DNA of 64,000 nt, taken from contig NZ_CP018620.1 in assembly GCF_001908275.1 (NCBI RefSeq), forward strand, positions 2,728,001-2,792,000, given 5' to 3'. This document shows positions 47,378-59,150 of this stretch, in pieces (within the stretch, counting starts at the first letter, position 1; each line of letters begins with the position of its first letter). The position numbers and the translations under genes were made by a program. The DNA is from Paenibacillus xylanexedens (GTDB lineage Bacteria > Bacillota > Bacilli > Paenibacillales > Paenibacillaceae). The notes below the pieces were generated by a model. The model saw nothing but the letters and a program-made list of their open reading frames with translations, searched no databases and was not told where the DNA came from.

Positions 47378-48697
47378 TTATTTTTCTGAAGGAGCAGGTA
47401 CAGCTTTGGTGACCTGGGCCTCGGAAGGGACGGATACGATTTCAGGAGATCCACCCATAGAAGGAACAGTTGCTGCTTCTACAACTTTAGCCTCAGAAGG
47501 TTTAGTAGTAGAAGGTACAGTAGCAGACGGAACTGGCACAGCTTCGGAAACTTCATCCTCAGGGAGAGCCACGATTTCAGGAGTTTCGGAAGTGGAAGGA
47601 GCAGTTACAGCTTCGGAAATTCCGACCTTGTTGGGAGAAGCTACGATTTCAGAAGATCCATCAGTAGAAGGAACAGGCACAGCTTCAGTAGCATGGGCCT
47701 CTACTTTAACTGTGTGGTTTGATGCCCATACGGCAGTGGACGTACTTACACCTGTAATAAGCAGGAGGGCTCCCATACTTAACATCCAATGTTTCTTTTT
47801 CAGTTTCTTTACATTAAACATAATCATCAATCTCCTTTTTAATTGTTTGCCTTCACCCGATAGGGACGAACAAAATTGAGCAGGTATTTTCTTGGTTCCC
47901 GCCATCACATTTAAAATTGTCTCACCATATCGTCTTCGTTCTTCGTGGGACATCTCTTTCACCACATCTTCATCACAGGCCAACTCGCTCCAAGTATGAA
48001 TGTCAAGACGAATCATATGAATCAGGGGATTGAACCAGTGCAGTGCACTAACCCCCAAGGTCACAGCCTTGACCCACAGATCTTTATGTTTTAGATGTAC
48101 CAACTCATGATGAATTACCATGCTGATGTCCATTTTCACCGTATTTTCGGGTGGCAGATATATCGTTGGTTTAAACAAGCCAACCAGTATAGGGCTACGT
48201 ACTAGAGTGCTGTGAGCAAGCGTGATATTGCGTTTGAGACCCAAAGCCTCTTTGATTAATGGTAGCTGTATAGCTGCCTCACTATTACAGAGGACTGACG
48301 TACGTGTACGAGATAATTCATTCAAAAATCTCCGATAACAGTACACCTGCCATGCAGAAAAACCTATGACTCCAATGCCCCATACGAATAACAAGAACCA
48401 GGCTGTAGTTACCGAAATGGTTTGTTCCGGGATAAACGTTCCTGCGAGTAAGAGCGAAGCTGTTGCATTCTCCGTACCCTGTGTAGTTGATGTCGTTTGG
48501 AATGCCATATCCAAAAGCCATGAAAGGCCAAGAGATACCGGGAACAGATAAAACAAGATAGCCATTTTACCGAGTCTGTAGAGCCACTTGGTCGGAAAAA
48601 CAGATACGGGTATAAGTCGTAGTGCCAAAATACAAACAGAAACGATACTTCCCGCCACGGTCAGGCTGCACAGAATTTCAAAAAAGATGTTCATCAT
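47378..48697 (-). CDS. M56-family (BlaR1/MecR1-like) membrane metallopeptidase with repetitive tail
   Basis: About 439 residues. Several N-terminal helices and the zinc protease motif HELVH in MVIHHELVHLKHKDLWVK, with the downstream ELACDEDVV, define the M56 domain. Canonical BlaR1 continues after its last helix (WMLSMGALLLITGVSTSTAVWA) with a penicillin-binding sensor; here only about 110 residues of Pro/Ser/Val/Glu repeats follow. The ATG at 48697 or 48694 is preferred to the GTG at 48703, which touches the preceding stop codon. The BlaI-type repressor gene lies directly upstream, so the pair should form an inducible protease-repressor switch with an unknown signal. Confidence 0.84.
   Translation of the reverse strand: MMNIFFEILCSLTVAGSIVSVCILALRLIPVSVFPTKWLYRLGKMAILFYLFPVSLGLSWLLDMAFQTTSTTQGTENATASLLLAGTFIPEQTISVTTAWFLLFVWGIGVIGFSAWQVYCYRRFLNELSRTRTSVLCNSEAAIQLPLIKEALGLKRNITLAHSTLVRSPILVGLFKPTIYLPPENTVKMDISMVIHHELVHLKHKDLWVKAVTLGVSALHWFNPLIHMIRLDIHTWSELACDEDVVKEMSHEERRRYGETILNVMAGTKKIPAQFCSSLSGEGKQLKRRLMIMFNVKKLKKKHWMLSMGALLLITGVSTSTAVWASNHTVKVEAHATEAVPVPSTDGSSEIVASPNKVGISEAVTAPSTSETPEIVALPEDEVSEAVPVPSATVPSTTKPSEAKVVEAATVPSMGGSPEIVSVPSEAQVTKAVPAPSEK
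47381..47686. repeat. Tandem degenerate repeat encoding the M56 tail
   Basis: About four degenerate units of 20-25 codons, each built on A-V-P-V-P-S then E-I-V-x-x-P (for example SEAVPVPSTDG, SEAVTAPSTS, SEAVPVPSATV, TKAVPAPSEK), encode the C-terminal 102 residues. Confidence 0.75.
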
Positions 48698-48703
48698 CTG
48701 CAC

Positions 48704-49078
48704 CTACTTTTCCGAAAGCCATTTTTTCAGTTCTGAAATGTCATCGTCTGAAAGCTTGTCGCCATCATACATGGCCGAAACCAAATTTTTAACTGAACCT
48801 TGGTAGAGTCCATCAATAACGTGCTGCGTTTCCTGTAGTTTGTAATCTTCGGGTTGTAGAAGAGGTACATAATCATTGGTTCGTCCACGTCTCGTGACGG
48901 TAAGTGCGCCTTTATCCACCAACCGTGATAGAAAGGTAGACATGGTCTGCGCTTTCCACGCTTTCCCCTTCTCAGCGAATATGTCTAATAGTTCTGTCGA
49001 GGTGACCGGTGGGGCGCATGACCATATAACGACCATTAACTCCATTTCTGTTTCGGATAATTTTTGAATCTGGTTCAC
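48704..49078 (-). CDS. BlaI/MecI/CopY-family repressor
   Basis: About 124 residues. The winged helix LSETEMELMVVIWSCAPPVTSTELLDIFAEKGKAWKAQTMSTFLSRLVDKGALTVTRRGRTNDYVPLL is typical of BlaI/MecI, with a short C-terminal dimerisation tail. AAGGAG lies 8 bases before the GTG at 49078, which I prefer to the GTG at 49087. The stop codon is adjacent to the M56 gene. Upstream, two palindromes of the ACTAC-type expected for BlaI operators lie over the promoter region. No beta-lactamase or PBP gene is close by. Confidence 0.86.
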   Translation of the reverse strand: MNQIQKLSETEMELMVVIWSCAPPVTSTELLDIFAEKGKAWKAQTMSTFLSRLVDKGALTVTRRGRTNDYVPLLQPEDYKLQETQHVIDGLYQGSVKNLVSAMYDGDKLSDDDISELKKWLSEK

Positions 49079-49122
49079 AGTGAACACTCCTTAACATCGT
49101 TATGCGCCCATAACGATTGTAT

Positions 49123-50774: not shown

Positions 50775-50803
50775 CACTTCATAACAAAAGAAAACACAAC
50801 AGG

Positions 50804-50826
50804 AAGGGCAGAGGCATCTGCCCTTT
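50804..50826 (+). terminator. Terminator after the epimerase gene
   Basis: AAGGGCAGA (50804-50812), loop GGCA, TCTGCCCTT (50817-50825), then T/A-rich sequence. Confidence 0.82.
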
Positions 50827-50896
50827 ATTATATATTTTAAGGTTTACGTCATGGCGTTTCGCCATTTGAGGTGGAGGATTCATTTCATTTATATAT

Positions 50897-51114
50897 GTTC
50901 AACTAAACATTTACACGATAACGGAGAGGACAGAAATAACTTGAAGAAGCGAAGCGTTCGCCTACAAGCTTTCTGAAAGAAAGCTGCATCGGAAGCATAT
51001 GCTTATCCCCGGATTTTCCCTTTTTAAGAAGGGAATCAAAAAAATCTGGGGATAACAGCGATCGGAAGGTTGTTCTGTCATCGGAGTGTCTGTGTAAATA
51101 CTAATTAGCTGAAC
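50897..51114. repeat. Palindromic intergenic repeat, family A, copy 2
   Basis: About 218 bp. Ends GTTCAACT (50897-50904) and AGCTGAAC (51107-51114) are inverted. GACAGAAATAACTT (50929-50942) pairs with AAGGTTGTTCTGTC (51066-51079), GCGAA-GCG-TTCGC forms a small hairpin, and a TTATCCCCGGATTTT arm pairs with AAAATCTGGGGATAA. It has the architecture of copy 1 (12861-13040) but with an extra small hairpin (AAGCTTTCTGAAAGAAAGCTGC region, partial). Its 70 bases of left flank (50826-50896) show only a short ATGGCG-TTT-CGCCAT hairpin. Confidence 0.8.
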
Positions 51115-51124
51115 TTATAGAGGT

Positions 51125-51292
51125 TTTTCAAAAAGTCCGCTTTTGATTACGAAGGATGCCTATCGGCATCATCAGCATCGAATATGGAATTCAGCCGAAA
51201 TGTCCGTTGCTCACGTAGTTTTCCTACGCTCCGCTACTCCATTTCTAGCTTCATCCCATCTTCTCGGTACTGAAAACCGGTCTTTTTGAATA
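51125..51292. repeat. Long imperfect palindrome, family B (MITE-like)
   Basis: About 168 bp abutting repeat A. TTCAAAAAGTCCG (51127-51139) is inverted as CGGTCTTTTTGAA (51278-51290) with one mismatch, and the pairing continues inward (CTTTTGATTAC against GTACTGAAAACC). No coding frame is visible. The right end is 45 bases before the ketoacyl synthase start, so the promoter of that operon lies within or before the repeats. Confidence 0.75.
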
Positions 51293-51335
51293 CGAACTTA
51301 TATATCAGTCAGATGAACAGAAAGAGGTTGGGGAA

Positions 51336-52337
51336 ATGCAACTTAGAAGAGTAAGGATCGCGGGAACAGGGAAGTACCTGCCTGAACAGGAAGTCACCGA
51401 TGAGGAACTGGATCGCCGCTTAGACGTGCCTGCGGGCTGGGTCAGCAAAGCCACAGGTGTAGGTGTGCGCCATTATGCTTCGGGTGAAGAAACCTCCTCT
51501 TTCATGGGCGCGCGGGCTGCGCAAGCTGCACTGGCGGATGCAGGATTACAATTCAGTGATATCGACTGTCTGGTGTGTACCAGTGGCACGAAGGAACAAC
51601 CGCTGCCAAGTACGGCGGTATTTATCCAGCAGGCTATGGGGCAGGAAGATTCTGGCGTACCTGCTTTTGATATGGATGCAACCTGCCTGAGTTTCCTGAA
51701 CGGACTCGATGTGATCTCCTATATGGTAGATGCTGGACGTTACCGGCGAGTACTGCTCGTAGCCACCGAGATTGCCTCAGCCGGACTAAATTGGTCTGAT
51801 AAAGAAAGTGCGGCCCTGTTCGGAGATGGAGCGGCCGCTGTTATTATTGAGCGTTCGCCTGAAGGGTCATCCTCTCAGATTGTACATGCTTCCCTTCAAA
51901 CCTACAGCCGAGGTGCTCGCTTCTCGGAGATTGCCGGTGGAGGTACACGGCTGCATGCTTCGAATTATAAGGCAGATCAGCCTGAACCCTACCTATTTCA
52001 TATGGATGGACAGGCGATCTTCCGCATGGCTTCCAGACTTTTGCCTGGCTTCATCAGCGATATGCTGCAGGCTACCGGGAATCGAATGGAGGATTTCCAA
52101 TTGGTCATTCCCCATCAGGGAAGTGCCATGGCGATGAGACTGATCCGTAAGAAGCTTGGCATTGCTGAAGATCGATTTATGGACATCACACGAAATCACG
52201 GCAATACGATCGCGGCATCTATCCCGATGGGTCTGCATGAAGCGATTAGACAACAGCGTATTCAGCGTGGAGATCGGGTGTTGATGATTGGCACGGCTGC
52301 CGGATTATCATTGGGAGGACTCATTTTTGACTACTAG
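51336..52337 (+). CDS. 3-oxoacyl-ACP synthase III family protein (FabH/OleA-like)
   Basis: 333 residues of the thiolase fold. The catalytic triad is visible: Cys in DMDATCLSFLNGL, His in LVIPHQGSAMAM and Asn in ITRNHGNTIAASIP. The end IGTAAGLSLGGLIFDY is typical. FabH starts fatty acid synthesis, while relatives (OleA, PqsD, CerJ-like) condense or transfer acyl groups in secondary metabolism. Its place as first gene of a tight operon of tailoring enzymes, away from fatty acid genes, favours a secondary role. The ATP-grasp gene starts inside its last codons. Confidence 0.88.
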   Translation: MQLRRVRIAGTGKYLPEQEVTDEELDRRLDVPAGWVSKATGVGVRHYASGEETSSFMGARAAQAALADAGLQFSDIDCLVCTSGTKEQPLPSTAVFIQQAMGQEDSGVPAFDMDATCLSFLNGLDVISYMVDAGRYRRVLLVATEIASAGLNWSDKESAALFGDGAAAVIIERSPEGSSSQIVHASLQTYSRGARFSEIAGGGTRLHASNYKADQPEPYLFHMDGQAIFRMASRLLPGFISDMLQATGNRMEDFQLVIPHQGSAMAMRLIRKKLGIAEDRFMDITRNHGNTIAASIPMGLHEAIRQQRIQRGDRVLMIGTAAGLSLGGLIFDY

Positions 52338-53619
52338 ATCTGGGGAAACCGGACATCGTACATCTGCTTCTCTCCGTGTGTTGCTTACAGGCGGAAGGGC
52401 TCCTGTAACGCTTGATCTGGCACGCATGCTTCATCGAGCAGGCCATCGGGTCTATGTTGCGGAGAGTGCCGTACGGCATCTGACCAGATTATCTCGTGCA
52501 GTGGAACAGTGTGCTGTGGTCCCGTCGCCACGTCATGAGACACATGCTTATCTGGCGGAGCTGGAAAGGTTGATTCAGGATTGGCAGATTGACCTGTTGA
52601 TTCCGATGTGTGAAGAAGTCTTCTATGTTGCTCAAGGGGCAGACAGACTGCGTGTACATTGCCGTGTCCTGGTTACAACTCTGGAGCAATTACATGAGCT
52701 GCACCATAAATATAATTTTATCAAGCTTGCAGGGTCACTCGGTCTTTCGGTTCCGGATACACGCCTGATCACCAGTCGGGAGGAATGGATGGGAGCTCAG
52801 TCTGTTCTGGGAAAAGTAGGAGATTGGGTGTGGAAACCGGTGTATTCCCGCTTTGCAGCCAAAGTTCGCATGCCAACACTCATGACCGATGACACTGGGG
52901 TAGGGACGGATCAGGAAGGAAACGTAAGCGAAAAGAAACGTCGACATTTCTGTAACGACCCTCCGGAAGAAGGGCAGTTATCCGTTGCTTCCCCTTGGGT
53001 TGCACAGGCCTACATTCCTGGTCAGATGTTATGTACATACAGCATAGCGCATGAAGGGCAACTGGTTGCACATGCCACTTACGACAGTCGCTATCGTACA
53101 GGAAGCGTGGGAGCCAGTGTCTTTTTTGAACAGGTGGAACATGATGATGCCCTTGCGTGGGTGAGACAATTTGTTGAGGCAACGGGTTTTAGTGGACAGA
53201 TTGGGTTTGATTTTATAGAAGGTCCGGATGGGCAAGTATATGCAATTGAGTGTAATCCGAGGGCAACGAGTGGGATTCATCTGTTTCACCCCGGAGATGA
53301 CTTGGTGCGTGCACTGACTGAACCGGAGACGTTGGTCAAAGAAAGAAGAATGATCACGCCCGCACGGGGCAGCAAAGCCATGCTCATGCTTCCCATGCTG
53401 GGAAGCGGGGTTCAGCAGATCTTCGGCAAAGGAAAGTTCCGGGCATGGATAGCAGCGTGGCGTGGCACCAGGGATGTGGTCTATGCACGACAGGATCTTC
53501 AACCTTTAATGGAACAATTCGGAGTGGTGCTGGCCGCATGGCGTCTGGCAAGATCGCAGAAGTGCTCGCTGACTGAAGCTTTGACTCACGACATAGAATG
53601 GAACGGTGAACAACAATGA
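52327..53619 (+). CDS. ATP-grasp superfamily ligase
   Basis: About 430 residues. The frame is open from 52288, but GGGAGGAC just upstream and the 11-base overlap with the ketoacyl synthase point to the TTG at 52327. An N-terminal Rossmann-like preATP-grasp part (LRVLLTGGRAPVTLDLARMLHRAGHRVYVAES) precedes the ATP-grasp core (NFIKLAGSLGLSVPDTRLI, VWKPVYSRFAAKV, GQIGFDFIEGPDGQVYAIECNPRATSGIHLF). The last motif has the Mg-binding Glu and Asn. Such enzymes join a carboxylate to an amine or thiol through an acyl phosphate. Substrates are unknown; a role in the pathway of this operon is inferred from coupling. Confidence 0.86.
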   Translation: MTTRSGETGHRTSASLRVLLTGGRAPVTLDLARMLHRAGHRVYVAESAVRHLTRLSRAVEQCAVVPSPRHETHAYLAELERLIQDWQIDLLIPMCEEVFYVAQGADRLRVHCRVLVTTLEQLHELHHKYNFIKLAGSLGLSVPDTRLITSREEWMGAQSVLGKVGDWVWKPVYSRFAAKVRMPTLMTDDTGVGTDQEGNVSEKKRRHFCNDPPEEGQLSVASPWVAQAYIPGQMLCTYSIAHEGQLVAHATYDSRYRTGSVGASVFFEQVEHDDALAWVRQFVEATGFSGQIGFDFIEGPDGQVYAIECNPRATSGIHLFHPGDDLVRALTEPETLVKERRMITPARGSKAMLMLPMLGSGVQQIFGKGKFRAWIAAWRGTRDVVYARQDLQPLMEQFGVVLAAWRLARSQKCSLTEALTHDIEWNGEQQ

Positions 53620-54611
53620 ACAGAGCATTGGTTACAGGAGCTACGGGATGTCTGGGCAGGCATCTCGCGATACGACTTGCACAAGAGGGATGGGAAGTCA
53701 CTGGCATGGGCCGACAGCCCAAAGTTGGGGCAGAACTTGAGTTGGCAGGAATCCGATTCCTGAATGGAGATATACGGGATGAGGCTGTCGTGAACGAAGC
53801 GTGTACGGGACAGGATGTGGTGTTTCACTGTGCAGCTCTATCCTCGCCATGGGGCCGTTATCGTGACTTTTATAGCAGTAATGTAGAAGGCACACAAAAC
53901 CTCATTGATGTCTGCCTGCATCATGAGGTACAGCGATTCATACATGTCTCAACTCCAAGTATATATTTTAACTACATACCGCGATTTAACGTACATGAGA
54001 ATGACCCGTTGCCATCCAAATCAGCCAATCATTATGCAGCCACGAAGCTTCTCGCTGAGCAGGTTGTAATGGAGGGGCATGCGAAGGGACTTCCGTCGAT
54101 CATGATTCGACCGCGAGCGATCTTTGGTCCGTATGATCAGACGTTATTTCCCAGAATTGTCGCAGCAAACGCAAAATCGGGCGTGCCCATGATCGGTGGT
54201 GGACAGGCATTAATCGATCTGACATGTGTGGATAACGTGGTGGATGCCCTATTATTGTGCCGAGATGTTGATGCCACAGCACTCGGCAGAGCCTACAATA
54301 TCTCCAATGGCGATCCGAGGGCGTTCAGTGAGTTGGTGAGCAGCCTGTTTGGCATGCTGGATATGCCCTTGCATCGTCGAAACATTCCTTATCGGATGGC
54401 ATATGGTGTGGCAGCGTTGCTGGAGCGAGTTCATGGCTATATTCCTGCGTTGGGTGAGCCTGCGTTAACAAGGTATACAGTCGGCTCCTTATCCATCCCA
54501 CAGACGTTGGATATTACGGATGCACAGGAGCAATTGGGATACATCCCTCGGGTGTCCATTGAAGAGGGATTGCAACAATTTGCAGACTGGTGGAGGGCTG
54601 AATCATGCTGA
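53616..54611 (+). CDS. NAD-dependent epimerase/dehydratase (3-beta-HSD/OleD-like)
   Basis: 331 residues of an extended SDR. The cofactor motif is VTGATGCLGRHLA, the active-site region is VSTPSIYFNYIPR with YAATK (YxxxK), and the second half has SNGDPRAFSELVSSLFGML. The closest group I can name is the 3-beta-HSD/OleD-like reductases that act on beta-keto acids or alkanoates. That would fit a product of the ketoacyl synthase, but no OleB/OleC partners are present. It overlaps both neighbours (4 and 7 bases). Confidence 0.85.
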   Translation: MNRALVTGATGCLGRHLAIRLAQEGWEVTGMGRQPKVGAELELAGIRFLNGDIRDEAVVNEACTGQDVVFHCAALSSPWGRYRDFYSSNVEGTQNLIDVCLHHEVQRFIHVSTPSIYFNYIPRFNVHENDPLPSKSANHYAATKLLAEQVVMEGHAKGLPSIMIRPRAIFGPYDQTLFPRIVAANAKSGVPMIGGGQALIDLTCVDNVVDALLLCRDVDATALGRAYNISNGDPRAFSELVSSLFGMLDMPLHRRNIPYRMAYGVAALLERVHGYIPALGEPALTRYTVGSLSIPQTLDITDAQEQLGYIPRVSIEEGLQQFADWWRAESC

Positions 54612-55465
54612 CGACAACTCCGGTAAAACTATATTTGGGTGCGGCGGGTTACTGTACACATCCAGAGTTTCTGACGCTGCGTGGTGGTCGATGGAGCCCA
54701 GTACCTTTCCCGGCAGGATTTGCCTGCATCATTCATCCCGTACATGGACCGATCCTGCTGGATACGGGATATAGTTCCCGCTTTTTCGAGGAGACGGCTC
54801 ATTTGCCTAACGCACTGTATCGTCATATTACACCAGTGGTCTATCGTGAGGAGGATAGTGCCGTTCATTTTCTGGCTGGGCTTGGACTGAAAGCTTCCGA
54901 TATTCGGTATATCATCCTCTCTCATTTTCACGGCGATCACATCGCGGGTGTGCGAGATTTCCCGGAGGCACAATTCATCTATCTGCCAAGAGCCTATGAT
55001 GCTGTGCGCTCACTTGGTCCGATTGCGGCTGTAAAAGCAGGCTTTCTTGCCGGGCTGTTACCCGAGAATTTTATGGCCAGATCATGGCCTGTTACGCGTC
55101 AGCCTGAGCGATGGACAAGAGCGGGGGAAGCTTTCCCTTTTGATGAGGTCTACGATATCTTTGGCGATGGCAGTCTGCTGGGGGTGGATGTATCCGGTCA
55201 TGCAGAAGGCATGATGGGACTCCTGCTGCGTACGGAAGAACATGACTATTTTCTCTGCGCGGACGCGGTGTGGTCGAGTCGGGCTTTTCGTGAACAGCGC
55301 AGACCGAACATTCTTGCTGGAATCATTATGTCGGATCGACAGCAGTATGGACGGAACTTTGATCGACTGGTTCAGCTGCATCAGCAGTTTCCCCACATTC
55401 GGATTGTGCCGAGTCATTGTCGAGATGCACTGGACGCTTGGGGTGAAGGAGGGCCAGCACGATGA
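54605..55465 (+). CDS. MBL-fold metallo-hydrolase
   Basis: 286 residues. The metal motif H-x-H-x-D-H is ILSHFHGDHIAGVRDF; further ligands are in GVDVSGHAEGMMG, FLCADAVW and the terminal RIVPSHCRDALDAW. This set fits the lactonase or thioesterase-like branch of metallo-beta-lactamase-fold hydrolases. In this operon it might release or hydrolyse an acyl thioester or lactone. It overlaps the upstream epimerase by 7 and the next gene by 4 bases. Confidence 0.87.
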   Translation: MLTTTPVKLYLGAAGYCTHPEFLTLRGGRWSPVPFPAGFACIIHPVHGPILLDTGYSSRFFEETAHLPNALYRHITPVVYREEDSAVHFLAGLGLKASDIRYIILSHFHGDHIAGVRDFPEAQFIYLPRAYDAVRSLGPIAAVKAGFLAGLLPENFMARSWPVTRQPERWTRAGEAFPFDEVYDIFGDGSLLGVDVSGHAEGMMGLLLRTEEHDYFLCADAVWSSRAFREQRRPNILAGIIMSDRQQYGRNFDRLVQLHQQFPHIRIVPSHCRDALDAWGEGGPAR

Positions 55466-56790
55466 GTAATACCTTTCGTATTGTGGTTCATTATGCACTC
55501 GCACGTGGGCTGCGAACATGGAAGGCACGAGAACAACTGGAGCGCTGGCAAGAACGCCGGATTATTCGGCATGTTCATCAGATTCGTGCCCGATCTCCAT
55601 TTTACGAGAAGTGGTGGGGGAGATTGGACGCATCCGACTGGAGAAGCTTTCCCTTGATTGACAAATCAATCATGATGGAGCACTTCGATACACTGAACAC
55701 GGTGGGCATTACCAAGGACGAAGCGCTGGTTCTTGCGGGTGAAAGTGAAGAAACACGCGATTTCAAACCTTCCATTCAAGGTGTGACGGTTGGACTGTCT
55801 TCGGGGACGTCAGGGAATCGGGGGATATTTTTGGTGAGTGATCGGGAGCAGGATGCGTGGACGGGCACAGTGCTGGCTAAGTTGCTTCCTGGTGGACTGT
55901 GGAAACCTGCGAAGATTGCGTTTTTCCTGCGGGCCAACAGTAATCTGTATGAATCGGTGCAACGTGGCAAATTGCAGTTTGAGTACTTTGATCTGCTGGA
56001 GCGTGTGGAGACCTTGGTGAATCGGCTGGAAACCTACCAACCTACCGTGTGGGTGGCTCCTCCATCCATGCTGCGTCTGTTGGCGGATGCCTATGTGGCA
56101 GGCCACCTGACCGCTGTACCGGATAAAATCATCTCTGTTGCCGAGGTGCTGGACCCCCTGGATCGCAAGGTGTTGGAGCAGGTCTTCGGACAGACCGTTC
56201 ATCAAGTCTATCAGTGTACGGAAGGATTTCTGGGTGCGACCTGTCGTTATGGCACACTGCATTTGAATGAAGATATCGTGCATATTGAAAAAGAGTTCAT
56301 TGATCCCGCCACCCTGCGGTTCGTGCCCATTATTACGGACTTCTCCAGAACATCACAGCCGATCATCCGGTATCGGTTGAATGATATTCTGACCGAGGCG
56401 GCGCTGCCATGTGCCTGTGGTTCCCCGTTTACCGCCATTGAGCGGATTGAAGGCCGCTGTGATGACACGCTTTATTTTTCAAACATGCATACGGATGAGG
56501 CGGTACCGGTCTTTCCGGATTTCGTTACCCGTTCGGTCATTGCGGCTTCGCCGGATATTGAACATTATCGTGTGGTGCAGCAAGGAGACGGAACAATGGA
56601 AGTATCTCTTCGACTTGGCGGGAGCGCAGTGATGGAGCAGGTCGAGACGGATGTACGGGGTGAACTGATGAAGCTGGGAGAGCGTCTGGAATGTACCCTA
56701 CCTGAGATCAGATTTGTTCCGTATACGTTTGAACCGGGACTTACGAAGCTGCGCAGGGTGGAGAGACGAGATAACGGAGTGGCGGATTAA
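55462..56790 (+). CDS. PaaK/F390-synthetase-like adenylate-forming enzyme
   Basis: 442 residues. The N-terminal RIIRHVHQIRARSPFYEKWWG is the start seen in PaaK/COG1541 proteins. The adenylation motif VGLSSGTSGNRGIFLVS contains the SSGTSG phosphate loop, and YQCTEGFLGATC and YRLNDILTEAALPCACGSPFTAIERIEGR are later core motifs with a Cys pair. These enzymes activate a carboxylate as an acyl adenylate and transfer it to CoA or another acceptor. I associate this subgroup with the label F390 synthetase-related; members have no firm substrate. It probably loads the acid that the operon works on. Confidence 0.84.
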   Translation: MSNTFRIVVHYALARGLRTWKAREQLERWQERRIIRHVHQIRARSPFYEKWWGRLDASDWRSFPLIDKSIMMEHFDTLNTVGITKDEALVLAGESEETRDFKPSIQGVTVGLSSGTSGNRGIFLVSDREQDAWTGTVLAKLLPGGLWKPAKIAFFLRANSNLYESVQRGKLQFEYFDLLERVETLVNRLETYQPTVWVAPPSMLRLLADAYVAGHLTAVPDKIISVAEVLDPLDRKVLEQVFGQTVHQVYQCTEGFLGATCRYGTLHLNEDIVHIEKEFIDPATLRFVPIITDFSRTSQPIIRYRLNDILTEAALPCACGSPFTAIERIEGRCDDTLYFSNMHTDEAVPVFPDFVTRSVIAASPDIEHYRVVQQGDGTMEVSLRLGGSAVMEQVETDVRGELMKLGERLECTLPEIRFVPYTFEPGLTKLRRVERRDNGVAD

Positions 56791-56858
56791 GCAACAGGGG
56801 TCGTGCGGTATAGGTAGGAACGGAAGTAAGTAATTTACCGAGGAAAGAAGGACACACC

Positions 56859-57779
56859 GTGACAGCAGAGGAACACTTAACAAAGGACGGCCAGGGGCGC
56901 ATTAACACGGGTCTTGGTGCAGTGAAGAAGACAAAGGAGAGAGCGAACGCTCCGGTGGCCTTAATTACGGGTACATCCAGTGGTTTTGGTATGCTCACCG
57001 CAATCACCCTTGCTAAGCAGGGGTATCTTGTTGTTGCTACAATGCGTGATCTGAGTCGAAGAGAAGAATTGGTGAAACTGGCTGAACAGGCGGGGTTAGC
57101 TGAACGTTTGCAATATGTGCAACTGGACGTGACCGATGCTGAATCCGTGCAGAAAGCTGTGCGGTCCGTACTTCATAATAATGGCCGAATCGACATGCTG
57201 GTGAACAATGCAGGATTTGCGGTGGGCGGGTTCATTGAGGAAGTATCGATGGAGGATTGGCGGCGCCAGATGGAAACGAATCTATTTGGATTAATCGCCG
57301 TGACACGTGCGGTCCTGCCTGTGATGCGTGAACAGAAGCAGGGGCTGATTATTAACTTGTCCAGTGTAAGTGGGTTGTCCGGTTTTCCAGGGTATGCGCC
57401 CTATGCTGCCTCCAAATTCGCTGTGGAAGGATTCACGGAAAGTTTGCGTCATGAGATATCTTCGTTCGGTGTTCGGGTGGTATTAGTTGAGCCTGGATCT
57501 TATCGCACGCCGATCTGGAATAAAGGTTTGGGTGAGATTCATCGGAGCGAGGACTCTCCGTATAAACATAAACTGGATGCGGTTCTTCGTTATTCCCAAC
57601 ATGCAAGCGAGACGGCACCTGATCCACAGGAGGTAGCTGATCTGATTGGCCGAATTGCACGGATGCGTGCACCAAGGCTTCGATATGCGCTGGGAAAAGG
57701 TTCGCGTGTGCTCATCATAGGCAAAGCCGTGCTACCCTGGAAGTGGCTGGAGCGGATTATCGCCCGTGGTTTAAAATAG
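56859..57779 (+). CDS. SDR-family oxidoreductase
   Basis: 306 residues from a GTG. After a 30-residue polar leader (TAEEHLTKDGQGR to TKERANAP) the classical SDR pattern begins: VALITGTSSGFGMLTAI, the NNAG motif in MLVNNAGFAVGG, Ser in INLSSVSGLSG and the YAASK catalytic motif. The C-terminus has a hydrophobic basic end (KAVLPWKWLERIIARGLK) that may touch the membrane. It starts 68 bases after the adenylating enzyme with AGAAGGA upstream and is probably the last gene of the biosynthetic operon. Confidence 0.85.
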   Translation: MTAEEHLTKDGQGRINTGLGAVKKTKERANAPVALITGTSSGFGMLTAITLAKQGYLVVATMRDLSRREELVKLAEQAGLAERLQYVQLDVTDAESVQKAVRSVLHNNGRIDMLVNNAGFAVGGFIEEVSMEDWRRQMETNLFGLIAVTRAVLPVMREQKQGLIINLSSVSGLSGFPGYAPYAASKFAVEGFTESLRHEISSFGVRVVLVEPGSYRTPIWNKGLGEIHRSEDSPYKHKLDAVLRYSQHASETAPDPQEVADLIGRIARMRAPRLRYALGKGSRVLIIGKAVLPWKWLERIIARGLK

Positions 57780-57990: not shown

Positions 57991-58575
57991 CCAATGAAAA
58001 TTGCATTCGTTTTGTTTGATGGACTGACTTTCCTTGATTTTGCAGGGTTTTATGATGTGATCAATCGGTTGAATTTCTTTGAACCAACCAAAGGAACGAC
58101 GTGGGAAACCTGTGCCATGACAGATCAGGTTACGGATGAGTCTGGTTTAACGATGAAGGTGGATCGAGTGAAGCCTGACCTCTCGGAATATGATCTCGTG
58201 TTCATCCCCGGGGGCATGGGAACGCGCAAGCTTCGATATGACGAGGCATTTGTAGGTTGGCTGAGACAGGCTGCGTCTGTACCATTGAAGGTTTCGGTGT
58301 GCACAGGCTCTCTGCTGCTGGGTGCAGCTGGTTTTTTATCCGGCAAAAAAGCAACAACACATCCCCGTGCATATAATTTGCTTGAGCCGTATGTCACCGA
58401 GGTGATTCAGAAGCGGATTGTAAAAGATGGAAATGTAATTACGGCTGGTGGAGTAGCCACGTCCATTGACCTTGGGATTTATGTTGTTGGGTTGCTTGCA
58501 GGACAGGAAGCGGCAGCGAATGTAAAACTTCAGATCGATTATCCTTATGAGATGCAGGGAGTGGTCGAAGAATGA
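57991..58575 (+). CDS. DJ-1/PfpI-family protein
   Basis: 194 residues from the ATG at 57991, set by CGGAGG 6 bases upstream; the frame is open from 57937. The fold is shown by MKIAFVLFDGLTFLDFAGFYDVINRL, DLVFIPGGMGTRKL and the nucleophile elbow KVSVCTGSLLLGAAGFLSGKKATTH with the reactive cysteine. Members include isonitrile hydratases, glyoxalases and chaperones; the sequence is closest to the group near isonitrile hydratase and AraC N-terminal domains. It overlaps the next GNAT by 4 bases. Confidence 0.86.
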   Translation, partial: PMKIAFVLFDGLTFLDFAGFYDVINRLNFFEPTKGTTWETCAMTDQVTDESGLTMKVDRVKPDLSEYDLVFIPGGMGTRKLRYDEAFVGWLRQAASVPLKVSVCTGSLLLGAAGFLSGKKATTHPRAYNLLEPYVTEVIQKRIVKDGNVITAGGVATSIDLGIYVVGLLAGQEAAANVKLQIDYPYEMQGVVEE

Positions 58576-59150
58576 ACGAAGGTCGAAAGCAAGAGACCTA
58601 TATCATTCGCAATATTCAGCGGGATGAAGCAGACATCTACTGGCCTTTGCGACTGGAAGCACTGAAAACACATCCTGAAGCCTTTGGGGCTTCGTTTGAA
58701 TTGTCCATTCAGATCCCTATGAATGAAGTGCAGGAACGCATACATAATGAGCCCGATGATTATATTCTAGGCGCATATACAACAGAAGGAACACTGGCGG
58801 GAATGATGGGTTTCAAAAGGGAACACGGCCTGAAGCTCAGGCACAAAGGCATGATCTGGGGCGTCTATGTTGCTCCGCCATATCGGGGAAGTGGGCTGGC
58901 TTCGCGTTTGCTCCGCGAGGTGCTGGATCGGGGAAGACATCTGGAAGGTATCAAGCAGATTAATCTGAGTGTAGTGACAACCAATGAATCAGCCCGACGT
59001 TTATACGAGCGATATGGATTTGAAGTTTATGGCATCGAGCGTAACGCGTTGGAAGTCCATGGCCGGGGATATGATGAGGCGCATATGAATTACTTTTATG
59101 CGGTGCACTCAACATTGGATGATGATATCACAACAGGAGGAGCCCTATGA
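58572..59150 (+). CDS. GNAT family N-acetyltransferase
   Basis: 192 residues. The acetyl-CoA site is GMIWGVYVAPPYRGSGLASRLLREVL (loop YRGSGLA), and LSVVTTNESARRLYERYGFEVYGIER is the C-terminal GNAT motif. The N-terminal DEADIYWPLRLEALKTHPEAFGASFE is frequent in the group acting on small amines or peptides. It is coupled to the PfpI gene upstream and to the kinase-like gene downstream (both by ATGA overlaps). Substrate unknown. Confidence 0.85.
   Translation: MNEGRKQETYIIRNIQRDEADIYWPLRLEALKTHPEAFGASFELSIQIPMNEVQERIHNEPDDYILGAYTTEGTLAGMMGFKREHGLKLRHKGMIWGVYVAPPYRGSGLASRLLREVLDRGRHLEGIKQINLSVVTTNESARRLYERYGFEVYGIERNALEVHGRGYDEAHMNYFYAVHSTLDDDITTGGAL

What the first reader, a model, noticed from the sequence alone, without database searches (positions are those of the whole stretch)
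51336..57779. Uncharacterised, tightly coupled biosynthetic operon: KAS III, ATP-grasp, OleD-like SDR, MBL hydrolase, PaaK/F390-like ligase, SDR
Five genes overlap in series (11, 4, 7 and 4 bases) and a sixth follows after 68 bases, so they are translated together. The set contains a carbon-chain condensing enzyme, two kinds of acid-activating ligase, two reductases and a hydrolase, all with catalytic residues in place. It is not a known olefin, resorcinol or fatty acid cluster: no OleB/OleC, no aromatase, no ACP and no NRPS/PKS. A small amidated or ester-linked acyl product is a plausible guess.
Basis: partly seen in the sequence, partly recalled or inferred. Interest (0 to 1): 0.75.

Follow-up and report, generated by a model that had tools for sequence, protein, structure and literature searches.

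The report
Conserved lipid-like operon, modular, product unknown
Five side-by-side Paenibacillus genes form a conserved but uncharacterised pathway whose four-gene core also sits in E. coli, Streptococcus, Fusobacterium and soil bacteria, usually beside different finishing enzymes, so it probably makes an undescribed family of lipids.

Summary
In detail: six genes at 51336-57779 overlap by 11, 4, 7 and 4 bases, then a 68-base gap. The real unit differs. KAS III, ATP-grasp, OleD-like SDR, MBL and F390-like ligase keep this order in 77 of 80 loci (best 80 of 557 relatives). In 60 genus genomes, KAS III, ATP-grasp and F390 occur in the same 35. The SDR is looser: 4 genomes have it without the block. 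A GNAT acyltransferase gene follows F390 in 47 of 80 loci; here it lies 3.1 Mb away. It occurs in 31 of 35 operon carriers and 0 of 25 others.

The core KAS3-OleD-MBL-F390 recurs in Pseudomonadota, Fusobacteriota and other Bacillota, beside exchangeable partners: PAP2, hydroxylase and desaturase (E. coli, 672 of 5426 genomes), glycosyltransferases, sulfotransferase, DUF3419, or ATP-grasp plus GNAT. I infer a hydroxy-acyl lipid core with a swappable head group, here probably amide- or ester-linked. It is not an Ole cluster: the OleA glutamate is absent in 23 of 23 and there is no OleB-type hydrolase in the window. The product is unproven. My literature searches found no description.

The parts
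51336..52337 (+). KAS III (beta-ketoacyl synthase III-type condensing enzyme); C117, H260, N290; no OleA-type Glu (L90)
   Evidence: NF005541 452 bits, cut-off 402; best solved relatives MxnB 4v2p and CorB 4yuc; clade with MxnB/CorB apart from FabH
52327..53619 (+). ATP-grasp ligase, 430 aa from TTG 52327 (mechanical ORF from 52288); possibly a carboxylate-amine ligase
   Evidence: NF005315 381 bits, cut-off 406; PF02655; model pLDDT 87; 2pn1, PylC, L-amino acid ligase 3vot, PurK/PurD, biotin carboxylase
53616..54611 (+). OleD-like extended SDR (3-oxoacyl reductase type by resemblance), Y140/K144
   Evidence: (NF042422 258 bits, cut-off 580)
54605..55465 (+). MBL-fold hydrolase, AttM/AiiA lactonase-like, complete dinuclear metal site H107/H109/D111/H112/H199/D220/H271
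55462..56790 (+). F390 synthetase-related / PaaK-like adenylate-forming enzyme (TIGR02304), K429
   Evidence: (511 bits, cut-off 251.9)
56859..57779 (+). classical SDR; linked neighbour, not an obligatory member (kept at the site in 4 genus genomes that lack the other five genes)
   Evidence: (NF005372 385 bits, cut-off 320)
50775..51335 (.). upstream intergenic region of the operon; holds a repeat element (51115-51310, 44 matches in the genome, itself included) and a terminator-like hairpin after the preceding gene (50803-50826)

Best explanation
A modular lipid (acyl) biosynthesis pathway. Shown here: a four-enzyme core, KAS III, OleD-like reductase, MBL hydrolase and F390/PaaK-like adenylating enzyme, is conserved as a unit and sits beside different partner enzymes in different bacteria. 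In this Paenibacillus the partners are the ATP-grasp ligase in the operon and a GNAT-type acyltransferase encoded 3.1 Mb away. Inferred steps: (1) KAS III joins a fatty acyl thioester to a malonyl- or beta-ketoacyl carrier thioester. (2) The OleD-like SDR reduces the beta-keto group to a hydroxyl. (3) The MBL enzyme releases the acid from its carrier (thioesterase) or opens a lactone. (4) The F390-like enzyme re-activates the carboxylate as an acyl adenylate. (5) The ATP-grasp ligase and the GNAT enzyme attach an amino acid or amine and/or a second acyl chain, giving an aminoacyl or acyl-amide lipid. Elsewhere the hydroxyl or acid would be capped by sugar, sulfate, a phospho head group or an aminocarboxypropyl group instead.
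For: The five-gene order is kept in 77 of 80 loci. KAS3, ATP-grasp and F390 occur in the same 35 of 60 genus genomes. GNAT occurs in 31 of those 35 and 0 of the other 25, though unlinked in this genome (relatedness not corrected for). In four genomes the block is missing between conserved flanks, one of them with a decayed KAS III fragment. The core is complete and adjacent in 17 of 20 Bacillota regions that I chose from the hits and in 16 of 18 plasmid or E. coli regions that I chose. Partners: UGT in Streptococcus-type genomes and Enterococcus; GT21 in Enterococcus and Fusobacterium; PAP2, FA_hydroxylase and FA_desaturase in E. coli; divergent sulfotransferase in Ketogulonicigenium and two Paracoccus; DUF3419 and GNAT in Rhizobium; GNAT, Rieske and ATP-grasp in Rhizobiaceae and Roseateles. 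Catalytic residues are intact. Release from a carrier followed by re-adenylation of the acid has a proposed precedent in chalkophomycin biosynthesis (ChmF/ChmK, PMC10849742, passage).
Against: No product, substrate or enzyme activity was tested. All loci were gathered through the F390 gene and partly chosen by me, so the linkage counts are conditional on it. ATP-grasp fold matches are tied among amino acid ligases, PurD, PurK and biotin carboxylase, so 'amide ligase' is not proved. The GNAT model was poor (pLDDT 57) and was not searched. Four F390-positive genus genomes lack GNAT, so GNAT is not strictly needed. Some partners say nothing about lipids: Rieske proteins, a 530-aa protein without Pfam match in Pseudomonas FeN3W, and no added partner seen in some Bacillota regions (L164, L167, L173 have only ATP-grasp). 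In Thermoflavimicrobium an alpha/beta-hydrolase follows F390, which suits the Ole-like rival. In the Pseudomonas megaplasmids the core is scattered (pBASL58) or only F390 and an ATP-grasp relative are present (pMPPla107).
Confidence: 0.48

Rival explanations
1. An Ole-like beta-lactone pathway by convergence: KAS III gives a beta-keto acid, the OleD-like SDR a beta-hydroxy acid, the F390-like adenylating enzyme closes a beta-lactone as OleC does, and the MBL enzyme is a matching lactonase.
For: Same order of chemistries as OleA-OleD-OleC; OleD models are the best NCBIfam matches of the SDR and lactonases those of the MBL. An alpha/beta-hydrolase (the OleB fold, recalled) follows F390 in Thermoflavimicrobium. 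OleACD clusters without OleB are linked to beta-lactones, and one with a glycosyltransferase is described (PMC7064751, passages).
Against: KAS III lacks the OleA glutamate (23 of 23) and the OleA pattern (0 of 23). The seven NCBIfam hits of the F390-like protein include no OleC model (whether the library holds one was not checked). PMC7158056 detected no ole clusters in Firmicutes (passage). Head-group-type partners are hard to fit with a closed lactone.
Confidence: 0.17
2. A pyrone- or butenolide-forming pathway: KAS III fuses two beta-ketoacyl chains as MxnB and CorB do, and the other enzymes tailor or open the ring.
For: The closest solved relatives are MxnB (38.9% identity) and CorB (37.1%). 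The operon KAS IIIs and MxnB/CorB form one clade apart from FabH (100/100). MxnB also lacks the Glu (V94, PMC4578411, parts 1 and 2 of 3 read).
Against: No PKS or carrier protein among the six window genes. A reductase that removes the beta-keto group works against pyrone closure. Clade membership does not fix the reaction, and the branching order inside the clade is open.
Confidence: 0.1
3. A secreted small molecule (signal or antibiotic) rather than a structural lipid; the MBL lactonase-like enzyme serves turnover or self-protection.
For: MBL resembles N-acyl homoserine lactonases (AttM 80 bits, cut-off 390). The operon is present in only 35 of 60 genus genomes and can be lost as a block, as accessory metabolite clusters are. 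A TetR regulator adjoins the core in Ketogulonicigenium and both Paracoccus, an ArsR-type one in Paraburkholderia.
Against: No transporter or regulator lies inside the block in the window; flanking genes of most relatives were not annotated. Desaturase, hydroxylase, PAP2 and GT21 partners elsewhere belong to lipid enzyme families.
Confidence: 0.2

Closest known systems
OleABCD head-to-head olefin / OleACD beta-lactone pathway
   Same: A thiolase-fold condensing enzyme, a reductase of the same SDR subfamily, an ATP-dependent adenylate-forming enzyme and a hydrolase, encoded together
   Different: KAS III without the OleA glutamate and on the FabH/MxnB side; F390/PaaK-type ligase in place of OleC; MBL in place of the alpha/beta-hydrolase OleB; added ATP-grasp and GNAT
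MxnB / CorB ketosynthases (myxopyronin, corallopyronin)
   Same: Closest solved relatives of the KAS III; CHN triad, no OleA-type Glu; one clade apart from FabH
   Different: MxnB condenses two carrier-bound chains from a type I PKS (PMC5724707, passages); here no PKS, and a ketoreductase follows
Coenzyme F390 synthetase (FtsA) and phenylacetate-CoA ligase PaaK
   Same: Same superfamily; the protein scores over the cut-off of the 'F390 synthetase-related' model TIGR02304
   Different: Far below the cut-offs of FtsA (30.4 of 458.7 bits) and PaaK (28.6 of 646.3 bits)
Amino-lipid, betaine-lipid and ceramide-type head-group pathways (recalled: OlsB/OlsE ornithine lipids, BtaA betaine lipids, bacterial ceramide GNAT/reductase)
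   Same: Partners of the core elsewhere include a hydroxylase whose only NCBIfam hit is OlsE (66.6 bits, cut-off 475), a DUF3419 protein (BtaA-type, recalled), GT21 and GNAT enzymes
   Different: No serine palmitoyltransferase among the six window genes; the backbone would be made by KAS III

Membership tests
Ole (olefin / beta-lactone) pathway | OleA catalytic glutamate followed by Pro (pattern EPxx[AS]x(14,18)DxxNACL, PMC7158056) | tested here: not met
   0 of 23 operon KAS IIIs match; the equivalent residue is L or I in 23 of 23
Ole (olefin / beta-lactone) pathway | OleD equivalog (2-alkyl-3-oxoalkanoate reductase) | tested here: not met
   258.4 bits, curated cut-off 580
Ole (olefin / beta-lactone) pathway | OleB, an alpha/beta-hydrolase, encoded in the cluster | tested here: not met
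   No alpha/beta-hydrolase Pfam match among the six window proteins; one does follow F390 in Thermoflavimicrobium
Ole (olefin / beta-lactone) pathway | OleC beta-lactone synthetase encoded in the cluster | tested here: inconclusive
   No OleC model among the F390-like protein's seven NCBIfam hits, but I did not check that the library holds one; PF00501 scores 24.2 of 29.9 bits
TIGR02304, F390 synthetase-related protein | Score above the curated cut-off | tested here: met
   511.2 bits, cut-off 251.9
Coenzyme F390 synthetase (TIGR03335) | Score above the curated cut-off | tested here: not met
   30.4 bits, cut-off 458.7
NF005541 beta-ketoacyl-ACP synthase III | Score above the curated cut-off | tested here: met
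   452 bits, cut-off 402
MxnB/CorB-type chain-fusing ketosynthases | CHN triad, no OleA Glu, clade apart from FabH | tested here: met
   23 operon enzymes and MxnB/CorB group at 100/100 against four FabH sequences
MxnB/CorB-type chain-fusing ketosynthases | Condenses two beta-ketoacyl-carrier thioesters | not testable with these tools
   needs purified enzyme
N-acyl homoserine lactonases (AttM/AiiA) | Equivalog score | tested here: not met
   AttM 80.2 bits, cut-off 390; AiiA 41.8 bits, cut-off 375; metal ligands are present in 13 of 13
ATP-grasp L-amino acid ligases / PylC | ATP-grasp fold close to these enzymes | tested here: inconclusive

The most novel reading that the evidence does not exclude
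A previously undescribed, cross-phylum class of bacterial envelope lipids. Its backbone is not glycerol- or serine-derived but is built by a four-enzyme core (KAS III, SDR, MBL, F390-like ligase) and capped by whichever head-group enzyme a lineage carries: amino acid in Paenibacillus, sugar in oral streptococci and fusobacteria, sulfate in Rhodobacterales, phospho head group with hydroxylation and desaturation in about one in eight complete E. coli genomes.
Probability: 0.35. Interest if true: 0.88.

Novelty: new variant of a known kind. Interest (0 to 1): 0.66.

Why it matters
If the reading is right, an unrecognised lipid pathway is present in common human-associated bacteria (672 of 5426 complete E. 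coli genomes; F390 relatives named Streptococcus oralis, S. infantis, S. salivarius and Fusobacterium nucleatum) as well as in soil Paenibacillaceae. It would also give a likely function to a family that databases name only 'F390 synthetase-related', and hint at where MxnB/CorB-type ketosynthases came from. One deletion plus lipidomics would test it.

Tried and rejected
Ole membership: rejected by the missing glutamate and missing OleB. Simple fatty-acid synthesis: the genome has a separate FabH-like gene (G000:C1:3314239-3315204, 231 bits to NF005541) that groups with FabH in the tree, not with the operon enzyme. Loss of GNAT in the window's clade: first assumed from the missing gene, then corrected when one search found it 3.1 Mb away; its neighbours there (alkaline phosphatase, glyoxalase, MCP, pectate lyase) give no pathway clue. 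SDR as pathway member: weakened. Phage carriage: only 2 weak matches (23.8% and 28.4% identity) in the phage collection. GNAT structure: model too poor to search. Rfam and tRNA: no match in the window. Promoter-like sites: 9 found, 8.2 in shuffles. I saw no paper describing the operon, but some listings were partial (20 of 122) and most subscription journals are not held, so absence is weak evidence. Papers: PMC4578411 parts 1 and 2 of 3; passages only of PMC7158056, PMC7064751, PMC5724707, PMC2649909, PMC9823363, PMC5467263, PMC5501837, PMC10849742; the rest listings only. PMC9823363, PMC5467263 and PMC5501837 each name a 'coenzyme F390 synthetase' in a table or gene list, without operon context in the passages shown; whether those are TIGR02304 members was not checked. 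Links to ornithine, betaine and ceramide lipid enzymes, the OleB fold, and DUF3419 = BtaA-type are recalled, apart from the family hits cited.
Full report
What is there. The 11-base overlap rests on an ATP-grasp start at TTG 52327, which gives 430 aa, the length of the twelve nearest homologues. Family scores: KAS III is over the NF005541 cut-off (452 of 402 bits), F390 over TIGR02304 (511 of 251.9), SDR over NF005372 (385 of 320); ATP-grasp is just under NF005315 (381 of 406); the OleD-like SDR is far under NF042422 (258 of 580). dN/dS against five relatives is 0.03-0.24 in 28 of 30 comparisons; two could not be estimated. By protein identity the genome belongs to the Paenibacillus amylolyticus/xylanexedens group; no name was given by the tools.

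What the unit is. Of these 80, 77 keep KAS3-ATPG-OleD-MBL-F390 in this order. Of the other three, L101 has no detected MBL, L134 lacks ATP-grasp and L127 is cut by a contig start. Among 60 genus genomes, F390 is over cut-off in 35, KAS III over cut-off in 35 and the ATP-grasp found in 35, the same genomes. In the class, 49 of 299 genomes hold F390 over cut-off; in the phylum sample 6 of 299. The SDR is found in 39 of 60: the 35 plus G309, G310, G342 and G353. In those four the flanks keep the window's order (YfcH-type gene, SDR, the gene at window 58572-59150, MurI) and the five genes are absent. In G309 a KAS III fragment with frame breaks remains between YfcH and SDR. So the block of five comes and goes as a unit and the SDR is a resident neighbour, although SDR is linked in 62 of 80 loci.

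The missing member. In 47 of 80 loci a GNAT-type protein is the next gene sought after F390; the five aligned are 381-427 aa. Its PF13480 match is weak: 4 of 5 scanned hit at E 0.1 or better, one over the cut-off; the window genome's own copy scores 34.6 bits against a cut-off of 22. It is not next to the operon here. A search of the 60 genus genomes found it in 31, all among the 35 F390 carriers, and in none of the 25 others (Fisher p 4.6e-13, uncorrected for relatedness). In the window's genome it lies at G000:C1:5886523-5887668 on the minus strand, 3.1 Mb away. Co-retention without linkage is good evidence for a shared pathway. G300, G325, G328 and G333 have the operon without it.

The core and its partners in Bacillota. 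Outside Paenibacillaceae the ATP-grasp is not always there. I took regions from 20 genomes: 18 of the 49 hits and two further hits. The adjacent core KAS3/OleD/MBL/F390 is complete in 17; L175 is degraded, L181 has only a distant F390, and L182 is a contig end. Streptococcus-type genomes (F390 relatives named S. oralis, S. infantis and S. salivarius) and an Enterococcus (its 2622437-base contig is named E. saccharolyticus) carry a UDP-glycosyltransferase, and no ATP-grasp or GNAT in the region. The Enterococcus adds a GT21 and an SDR. In Thermoflavimicrobium an alpha/beta-hydrolase follows F390.

The core and its partners elsewhere. I opened 17 plasmid records, chosen from the matches (77 records; 61 records, largely the same), and one E. 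coli chromosome. Unopened ones include duplicates and many phenylacetate-CoA-ligase-type matches. Of the 18 regions, 16 have the complete adjacent core; L184 and L200 are the same E. coli locus in two records, so 15 are distinct. Partners: PAP2, FA_hydroxylase and FA_desaturase in E. coli between narI and purU; divergent TetR and sulfotransferase in Ketogulonicigenium and two Paracoccus; DUF3419 and GNAT in Rhizobium NIBRBAC000502774; GNAT, Rieske protein and ATP-grasp in Rhizobium BT03, Shinella and Roseateles; ATP-grasp and Rieske in Novosphingobium; ATP-grasp and GNAT in Paraburkholderia; ATP-grasp in Pontibacillus; GT21 in Fusobacterium; a 530-aa protein without Pfam match in Pseudomonas FeN3W; the full set with GNAT and SDR on a Paenibacillus urinalis plasmid. 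The two exceptions are Pseudomonas megaplasmids. In E. coli, 672 of 5426 complete genomes match the 6.9-kb locus, 671 of them over at least 80% of it; 671 of 673 places are on chromosomes. Several partner types (desaturase, hydroxylase, PAP2, GT21, UGT, sulfotransferase, DUF3419) belong to families that act on lipids or on hydroxyl groups, the main reason to read the core as maker of a hydroxy-acyl backbone. This step is inference.

Enzymes. KAS III keeps C-H-N in 23 of 23 operon sequences. The residue that is Glu in OleA and PpyS and Val in MxnB is L or I in 23 of 23, and the OleA pattern is absent in 23 of 23. In a tree with MxnB, CorB, three FabH structures and the genome's own FabH, the 23 operon enzymes join MxnB/CorB apart from FabH with 100/100 support; the order inside is open. 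MBL metal ligands, OleD YxxxK and the F390 C-terminal lysine are kept in 13 of 13. The ATP-grasp model (pLDDT 87) resembles 2pn1, PylC, PurD/PurK, biotin carboxylase and L-amino acid ligase 3vot, with ties.

Mechanism and limits. The most likely reading is condensation, reduction to a hydroxyl, release, re-activation, and attachment of a head group by the ATP-grasp and GNAT enzymes. Release followed by re-adenylation is proposed for ChmF and ChmK in chalkophomycin biosynthesis (PMC10849742, passage). Only the gene facts are shown; each chemical step is inferred from family chemistry. Convergent beta-lactone, pyrone and secreted-signal readings remain open. Loci were collected through F390, so linkage counts are conditional on it. 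I found no description of this operon family in 10 full-text searches of open-licence papers.

Novelty. The proteins have family models, so the parts are known by name. The pathway, its modular partners and its spread were not described in what I could search. The chemistry logic is like Ole with other enzyme types in two places, hence 'new variant of a known kind'; a new lipid class would move it higher.

Noticed in passing
window 51115-51310: Repeat element just upstream of the operon with 44 matches in the genome (itself included), a dozen of them over most of its length at 91% identity or more; MITE-like.
   Followed up: partly
L212 7888-8124 (G309): Decayed 5' fragment of the KAS III gene between the YfcH-type gene and the SDR, the trace of a deleted operon.
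   Followed up: yes
G000:C1:5886523-5887668: GNAT-type gene that accompanies the operon in relatives is relocated 3.1 Mb away in this genome.
   Followed up: yes
L184 (NZ_CP141085.1) and L192 (NZ_CP084075.1): Records labelled plasmids look chromosomal: the first carries narX to adhE of E. coli, the second is 2.1 Mb of Fusobacterium vincentii.
   Followed up: no
L186 and L187: Pseudomonas megaplasmids pMPPla107 (lone F390 plus an ATP-grasp relative) and pBASL58 (core genes interspersed with other genes) keep scattered pieces of the pathway.
   Followed up: partly
G337, G355, G336 operon genes: Possible decay or sequence errors: ATP-grasp with an internal TAG (G337) and matched over only 226 of 389 profile positions (G355); F390 in two pieces (G336)..
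   Followed up: no
window 47378-49087: Minus-strand M56/BlaR-like protein with a repetitive Pro-Val-Pro-Ser-rich C-terminal tail, next to a BlaI-like regulator (recognised by eye in the translations; not searched).
   Followed up: no
L195 9313-10905: A 530-aa protein without any Pfam match follows the core in Pseudomonas sp. FeN3W; a candidate further finishing enzyme.
   Followed up: partly
L062: Record labelled Paenibacillus polymyxa is 92% identical to the window's F390 protein, near-amylolyticus level; possibly mislabelled.
   Followed up: no
L102 11353-12225: In Thermoflavimicrobium dichotomicum an alpha/beta-hydrolase gene follows F390 35 bases downstream, where many relatives carry GNAT; could be an OleB-like step.
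   Followed up: partly
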